Positions 28,167 to 29,138 of a stretch of DNA of 36,340 nucleotides are shown piece by piece. The number at the start of each line of letters is the position of its first letter. Position 1 is the first letter of the stretch. A program made the translations under genes and the position numbers. This DNA comes from Ilumatobacteraceae bacterium (GTDB lineage: Bacteria > Actinomycetota > Acidimicrobiia > Acidimicrobiales > Ilumatobacteraceae), in assembly GCA_025463425.1 (NCBI GenBank), contig JAOBWQ010000269.1, forward strand, positions 1 to 36,340. Direction: 5' to 3'. The notes beneath the pieces are model-generated. The model made no database searches, was not told the DNA's origin, and saw only the letters and a list, made by a program, of their open reading frames with translations.

Positions 28167-29138
28167 TCACATCCGTCGGTGGGCGGCACCGAATGCGGCG
28201 CTGATCTCGGGGCGAATCCGACCGCGAGCCGAGATCTCAAAACCATTCGCCATCGCCCAGGAACGAACCTCGGCGGGAGACGGTGGCGCCGACGGCACCG
28301 CGCCCGCGACCGGGAGCTCGTCGGTGCGCCGGTCGCCGTGCATCTGATCTTGGTGGTGGGCGACGGCTGCGCCGAGGTATCGGTAGGTCCATTCCTGCGC
28401 CAGAGGACGGTTCTCGCAGAACACGATGGGTACTGTCGGAAACCTCACCTGAGCCTCCGCGAGGCCTTCGGCCACAACGGAGGGCCGGACGCGCTCGAGC
28501 TTGAACACGGAGGACCACCTGTCCTCCACGACGACCGCTGCGCGCGGGAGTGCCGCAAGGTCGGCCAGCAGGTAATGGAGCTTTCCCGACGTGAGGGTGG
28601 AGACGAGGTCGGCCAAGCTCTTGCGTTCCACTGCGGCGATGATCCGATCCTCGACGGTGACGGCGTAGTCGCCGGCCGGCAGCGATCGACGTTCGGTCGT
28701 GGCCTGCTGTTGATCGAACTTCCAGGGATAGCGCTCGTGTGAGTCGACCAGGATGTCGAGCACGCGGCCAGCGGCGCGGGCAGTCGGTGTCTGCACACCG
28801 GGGCGGGCCTGCTTGGCGGTGCGCGCGCTCTGCCAGAAGATGACCTCCCGTCCTCGGGCGGTCGTGAACACGAACTGCGAACGATGCTCGCGAGATCGAT
28901 CGAGGACGAGGTCGATCGCTGCGCCCCGTCGCACGCAGGACCGCACCGGCACACGTTCCACGATCTCGAGATCGTCGGGCCAGCCGTCGGCGCGATGGCA
29001 GTACACCTTGCTGGTCCGCGGCCACGTGTCACGAACCTTCAGCGCGATCCCCTCGCCACCGAGCGGCACGCGCAGCAGATATGGCAGCGACGACGAACTG
29101 TCCGGGTTGCGAGCGATCACGAACTCCAGAACCATCAT
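28167..29138 (-). CDS. ERCC4-domain nuclease with C-terminal Lsr2-like DNA-binding domain
   Basis: LVDSHERYPWKF...RRSLPAGDYAVTVEDRIIAAVERKSLADLVSTLTSGKL (ERCC4/XPF nuclease motifs) and C-terminal PAEVRSWAMANGFEISARGRIRPEISAAFGAAHRR (Lsr2 C-terminal pattern). Confidence 0.87.
   Translation of the reverse strand: MMVLEFVIARNPDSSSSLPYLLRVPLGGEGIALKVRDTWPRTSKVYCHRADGWPDDLEIVERVPVRSCVRRGAAIDLVLDRSREHRSQFVFTTARGREVIFWQSARTAKQARPGVQTPTARAAGRVLDILVDSHERYPWKFDQQQATTERRSLPAGDYAVTVEDRIIAAVERKSLADLVSTLTSGKLHYLLADLAALPRAAVVVEDRWSSVFKLERVRPSVVAEGLAEAQVRFPTVPIVFCENRPLAQEWTYRYLGAAVAHHQDQMHGDRRTDELPVAGAVPSAPPSPAEVRSWAMANGFEISARGRIRPEISAAFGAAHRRM

What the first reader, a model, noticed from the sequence alone, without database searches (positions are those of the whole stretch)
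28167..29138. ERCC4/XPF-type nuclease fused to a C-terminal Lsr2-like AT-rich-DNA binding domain
Seen: the central region carries the ERCC4 nuclease signature (VDSHER...LPAGDYAV...AVERKSLADLVSTL) and the last ~35 aa (AEVRSWAMANGFEISARGRIRPEISAAFGAAH) match the Lsr2 C-terminal pattern IREWARxNGxxVSxRGRIPxxVIxAYxAA, including the RGR minor-groove element. Established: Lsr2 is the actinobacterial xenogeneic silencer of AT-rich DNA. Inference: the domain would direct a structure-specific nuclease to AT-rich or foreign DNA, suggesting a role in anti-mobile-element defence or nucleoid-linked repair. The ~140-aa N-terminal region is not recognised. The architecture may already appear in automated annotation, but I know of no functional description.
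Basis: partly seen in the sequence, partly recalled or inferred. Interest (0 to 1): 0.66.

Follow-up and report, generated by a model that had tools for sequence, protein, structure and literature searches.

The report
XPF-type DNA-repair nuclease with Lsr2 tail
This gene encodes a bacterial relative of the XPF/Mus81 DNA-cutting enzymes with an Lsr2-type DNA-binding tail and an N-terminal domain shaped like the end-cleaning part of the DNA-break-joining enzyme LigD; the family has not been described in the papers we could search and may trim broken DNA ends.

Summary
The minus-strand ORF 28167-29138 (323 aa) carries an ERCC4 nuclease domain (Pfam E 1.5e-17, all catalytic residues invariant in 34 relatives) and a C-terminal Lsr2 DNA-binding domain (E 6.4e-11, RGR intact). 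It is an actinobacterial family: a ~265-aa core, to which the Lsr2 domain was added once and lost at least twice. Other members have no tail, or a winged helix (by eye) in its place.

The "unrecognised" N-terminus folds confidently on its own. Its three best PDB matches are all LigD 3'-phosphoesterase domains (TM 0.74), apparently without their metal ligands.

Most Acidimicrobiia carriers checked have no Lsr2 protein at all, neighbours are not defence genes, and no viral copy of the full architecture was found.

Context points, weakly, to repair. In two species of one genus the gene is divergently adjacent (about 100 bp) to a split NHEJ operon (ligase-Ku-polymerase), and synteny breaks just past it. 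Ku co-occurs, but controls show genome-size or lineage confounding.

Best reading: an XPF-type DNA-end or flap nuclease accessory to repair, perhaps NHEJ, with Lsr2 as a generic DNA clamp. New variant of a known kind; function untested.

The parts
28167..29138 (-). 323-aa protein: phosphoesterase-like N-terminal domain, ERCC4 nuclease, Lsr2 DNA-binding domain
28809..29138 (-). N-terminal domain, residues 1-110: all-beta, fold like the LigD 3'-phosphoesterase domain; invariant W39, P40, C47, H48, R71, D76, R81, R83, R86, F101, W102
   Evidence: AF2 of the domain alone pLDDT 91, pTM 0.83; Foldseek top three 3p43, 3p4h, 5dmp; residues
28380..28748 (-). ERCC4/XPF-type nuclease domain, residues 131-253, with GDX(n)ERKX(3)D
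   Evidence: Pfam PF02732, fold match 1j24, invariant catalytic residues
28182..28289 (-). Lsr2 DNA-binding domain (PF23359), residues 284-319, RGR at 305-307

Best explanation
It is a single-chain, XPF/Mus81-like structure-specific DNA nuclease used in DNA repair, most likely in processing broken or flapped DNA ends alongside Ku-based non-homologous end joining. The ERCC4 domain cuts. The N-terminal domain is a LigD-phosphoesterase-like beta barrel that has probably lost the phosphoesterase metal site and acts as a DNA-end or 3'-flap binding surface. The Lsr2 domain is an optional minor-groove DNA clamp that stands where XPF and Mus81 carry their helix-hairpin-helix pair. Shown: domains, fold, conservation, single acquisition of the Lsr2 tail, and linkage to an NHEJ operon in one genus. 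Inferred: substrate, end-processing role, and loss of phosphoesterase activity.
For: Intact, invariant catalytic motif and Hef/XPF fold. The N-terminal domain folds alone and its best three PDB hits are all LigD phosphoesterases, probability 0.99-1.00, TM up to 0.74. In G391 and G462 the gene is divergently adjacent to ligase-Ku-PrimPol, with start codons 115 bp apart in G391, and the genes to its left are not conserved while it and the NHEJ genes are. In G250 it is about 6 kb from Ku and a LigD without the PE domain. In the phylum sample, 25 of 25 genomes with the close family have Ku against 51% overall. A SNF2 helicase is a neighbour in two unrelated lineages. The tail is dispensable or swapped in relatives, and Lsr2 domains cap several other DNA enzymes.
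Against: Adjacency to NHEJ genes is seen in one genus only; no other locus examined (flanks of about 1-10 kb) shows it. Ku co-occurrence is confounded: other Lsr2-domain genomes are 32 of 37 Ku-positive, the class-level test gives 10 of 15 against 88 of 183 (P 0.19), 3 of 18 fusion-bearing genomes reached through named loci show no Ku, and NHEJ tracks genome size in bacteria generally (PMC7719229). Profile comparison does not confirm homology of the N-terminal domain to LigD-PE (hhalign E 0.23), so the residue-level claim about the lost metal site rests on an uncertain register.
Confidence: 0.42

Rival explanations
1. A general structure-specific nuclease for replication forks, recombination or excision repair (as Hef, XPF or Mus81), with no special tie to NHEJ; the Lsr2 tail merely raises DNA affinity.
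For: Motif and fold are XPF-like; neighbours are mostly unrelated; SNF2 helicase neighbours in two lineages; Ku association fails the controls.
Against: LigD-phosphoesterase-like fold of the N-terminal domain; conserved divergent pairing with ligase-Ku-polymerase in one genus.
Confidence: 0.35
2. A defence or mobile-element nuclease directed by the Lsr2 domain to AT-rich foreign DNA.
For: Established AT preference of Lsr2 (general knowledge); patchy distribution; copies on plasmids; Lsr2 domains also sit on a DNA methyltransferase, a TOTE-type primase-helicase and an MTES_1575 nuclease.
Against: No defence-island signal, ordinary window context, stable neighbourhoods within genera such as Actinomycetospora, tail absent in many relatives, the protein has no PADLOC nuclease match.
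Confidence: 0.1
3. A plasmid or chromosome maintenance nuclease, for example resolving dimers or recombination intermediates of large replicons.
For: Near-full-length copies on 22 actinobacterial plasmids, some with recombinase genes nearby.
Against: Copies in genome contigs share no common recombinase neighbour; the deepest relatives are in small-genome lineages.
Confidence: 0.13

Closest known systems
Archaeal Hef / XPF and eukaryotic XPF-ERCC1, Mus81-Eme1 nucleases (ERCC4 domain)
   Same: Nuclease fold and the GDX(n)ERKX(3)D motif
   Different: No helicase, no helix-hairpin-helix pair recognised; a beta-barrel domain in front and an Lsr2 domain behind
Lsr2 (actinobacterial nucleoid protein), DNA-binding domain PF23359
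   Same: C-terminal helix-loop-helix with RGR
   Different: No Lsr2 oligomerisation domain found; fused to an enzyme; present in genomes without any Lsr2 protein
LigD 3'-phosphoesterase domain (PF13298) of bacterial and archaeal NHEJ
   Same: Fold of the N-terminal domain (TM 0.74 to 3p43)
   Different: No Pfam or profile match; the metal ligands His42, His48, Asp50 (PMC8656161) appear replaced by Asn/Asp, Pro and Leu
Other enzymes with a C-terminal Lsr2 domain (TOTE primase-helicase, DnaQ-type exonuclease, MTES_1575 nuclease, D12 methyltransferase)
   Same: Same DNA-binding tail on a DNA-processing enzyme
   Different: Different catalytic domains

Membership tests
ERCC4/XPF nuclease superfamily | GDX(n)ERKX(3)D active-site motif | tested here: met
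   Invariant in 34 sequences
ERCC4/XPF nuclease superfamily | Restriction-nuclease-like ERCC4 fold | tested here: met
   Best PDB match 1j24, E 6.8e-8, TM 0.78 on the target length
XPF/Mus81/Hef proper | C-terminal (HhH)2 domain | tested here: not met
   No such Pfam domain; Lsr2 domain instead
XPF/Mus81/Hef proper | Active as a dimer on branched or flapped DNA | not testable with these tools
   -
Lsr2 nucleoid protein | C-terminal DNA-binding domain with RGR | tested here: met
   PF23359 E 6.4e-11
Lsr2 nucleoid protein | N-terminal oligomerisation domain | tested here: not met
   Only ERCC4 and Lsr2_DNA-bd matched at E up to 1
LigD 3'-phosphoesterase | Phosphoesterase beta-barrel fold | tested here: met
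   predicted structure only
LigD 3'-phosphoesterase | His-His-Asp metal site | tested here: inconclusive
   Apparently absent, but the sequence register is weak
Bacterial NHEJ accessory factor | Conserved operon or adjacency with ku/ligD | tested here: inconclusive
   Present in two species of one genus and loosely in G250; absent at the other loci examined
Known anti-phage defence system | Match to a defence model or defence-island context | tested here: not met
   the own hit is only the Lsr2 tail of a methyltransferase model

The most novel reading that the evidence does not exclude
A dedicated XPF-type nuclease of bacterial NHEJ or microhomology joining: a repurposed, non-catalytic LigD-phosphoesterase fold delivers 3' ends or flaps to an ERCC4 active site, giving bacteria a counterpart of XPF-ERCC1 flap removal, with a swappable DNA-binding tail (Lsr2, winged helix or none).
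Probability: 0.3. Interest if true: 0.78.

Novelty: new variant of a known kind. Interest (0 to 1): 0.52.

Why it matters
Bacterial NHEJ is described as essentially Ku plus LigD, with LigD doing the end processing (PMC8656161). A conserved actinobacterial XPF-type nuclease with a LigD-like domain and, in one genus, a place beside the Ku operon makes the question of bacterial flap or end trimming directly testable. It also shows the Lsr2 DNA-binding domain as a portable tail on DNA enzymes in genomes that have no Lsr2 silencer, so the domain alone should not be read as a sign of xenogeneic silencing.

Tried and rejected
Defence island: padloc and Pfam on 106 neighbours, rejected. Conserved neighbourhood across clades: none. 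Viral origin: a scan with the window protein found none and a profile scan found mainly ERCC4-domain matches (residues about 105-300), none spanning the whole protein. Sequence proof of the phosphoesterase relation: hhalign, Pfam and PDB sequence search all negative. Ku co-occurrence as strong evidence: rejected after the Lsr2-domain control and the class sample. Partner via shared Lsr2: most Acidimicrobiia carriers have no Lsr2. Literature: no paper pairs ERCC4 or XPF with Lsr2 meaningfully; subscription journals and preprints are not held.

Full report
WHAT IS THERE. The minus-strand ORF at 28167-29138 encodes 323 aa. Pfam finds ERCC4 (E 1.5e-17) and Lsr2_DNA-bd (E 6.4e-11) and nothing else. 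Thirty-nine loci in species genomes encode relatives, all with actinobacterial titles, and 22 plasmids of Mycobacterium, Rhodococcus, Pseudonocardia, Streptomyces and Mycolicibacterium hold near-full-length copies. In 34 aligned sequences the ERCC4 residues D132, E135, G156, D157, E171, R172, K173 and D177 are invariant. The AF2 model (pLDDT 87) matches Hef, XPF and Mus81 nuclease domains.

THE N-TERMINAL DOMAIN. Residues 1-110 have no Pfam match. Modelled alone they give pLDDT 91 and pTM 0.83. The three best PDB matches are all LigD 3'-phosphoesterase structures: 3p43 (probability 1.00, TM 0.74), 3p4h and 5dmp, with a drop to probability 0.14 at the next rank. The best viral-model match is an unnamed 827-aa protein. 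Profile comparison is not significant (E 0.23), though its short alignment pairs FVIARNPDSSSSLPYLLRV with the phosphoesterase metal-site strand FVVxKH-AxxLHYDxRL. In that register the metal ligands His42, His48 and Asp50 (PMC8656161) fall on N11 or D13, P19 and L21, so the phosphoesterase site looks lost; other invariant residues (W39, C47, H48, R71, D76, R81, R83, R86, F101, W102) could form a different site. This is a fold statement, not proof of homology.

MODULAR FAMILY. A profile search of 297 Actinomycetota genomes found the core in 30. Eight carry the Lsr2 tail, 17 have no tail or a disrupted frame, and five distant ones end in a sequence that reads like a winged helix (by eye). A quick maximum-likelihood tree of the core puts all Lsr2-tailed members in one supported clade (98*), with the tail lost in L002 and L127, both close to the window protein. 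The tail is therefore one acquisition, long kept, but dispensable.

THE LSR2 TAIL IS NOT A SIGN OF LSR2 SILENCING HERE. The own genome (79% complete) has no other Lsr2 domain. Of 198 Acidimicrobiia genomes only seven have an Lsr2 domain over the cut-off: four are this nuclease, one is a large AAA-helicase/MTES_1575 nuclease, and two hold Lsr2-sized proteins. Eight of nine Acidimicrobiia-type carriers reached through named loci, including Desertimonas flava, have a single Lsr2 domain, in a frame of the fusion's size. The same tail caps TOTE primase-helicases, DnaQ-type exonucleases and a D12 methyltransferase. It is best read as a generic DNA-binding module; AT preference was not tested.

CONTEXT. 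The window neighbours tested are ABC transporter parts, a SnoaL-like protein, a mycothiol transferase, an AHSA1 protein, an ArsR-type regulator and an AAA ATPase. No neighbour is conserved across clades, although within Actinomycetospora the surroundings are conserved. Among 106 neighbours the recurrent defence-type hits come from two SNF2 helicases, in L011 and L014 (only the 25 commonest of 59 padloc families were shown).

LINK TO NHEJ. In G391 the nuclease gene is divergent from ATP-dependent ligase, Ku and LigD-type PrimPol genes, with 115 bp between start codons. In G462, same genus, the block is kept (73-89% identity), while none of the genes to its left in G391 is found. In G250 Ku and a LigD without the PE domain lie 4-7 kb away. 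No other locus examined has NHEJ genes in its fetched flanks. Ku occurs in 25 of 25 close-family genomes of the phylum sample against 151 of 297 overall, but other Lsr2-domain genomes are 32 of 37 Ku-positive, the class sample is not significant (10 of 15 against 88 of 183, P 0.19), and 15 of 18 fusion genomes reached through named loci are Ku-positive. NHEJ tracks genome size (PMC7719229). The co-occurrence is therefore consistent but not specific.

READING. The catalytic part is secure. A repair role is the most economical account, and NHEJ end or flap processing is the best single guess, from the phosphoesterase-like domain plus the one-genus linkage. A general fork or recombination nuclease is nearly as likely. 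Defence is unlikely on present evidence. No held paper describes the architecture, while databases label it by its parts.

Noticed in passing
L082, L084, L085, L086, L087, L088: Lsr2 DNA-binding domains at or near the C-terminus of other DNA enzymes: TOTE primase-helicase, DnaQ-type exonuclease with or without BRCT, AAA helicase-MTES_1575 nuclease, D12 methyltransferase.
   Followed up: partly
L011:997-4290, L014:29-3328: SNF2 helicases of about 1098 aa with an apparent SWIM-type N-terminal zinc motif next to the nuclease gene in two unrelated lineages.
   Followed up: partly
L077-L081: Distant clade in small-genome Actinomycetota where the Lsr2 tail is replaced by a winged-helix-like end.
   Followed up: partly
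L134, L135: The window's genome has two Ku genes, one beside a PE-Pol LigD (C318) and one with no LigD found next to it (C107).
   Followed up: no
L145, L146: In G461 and G464 (the G391 family) the nuclease reads in two frames, so it may be decaying or mis-assembled.
   Followed up: no
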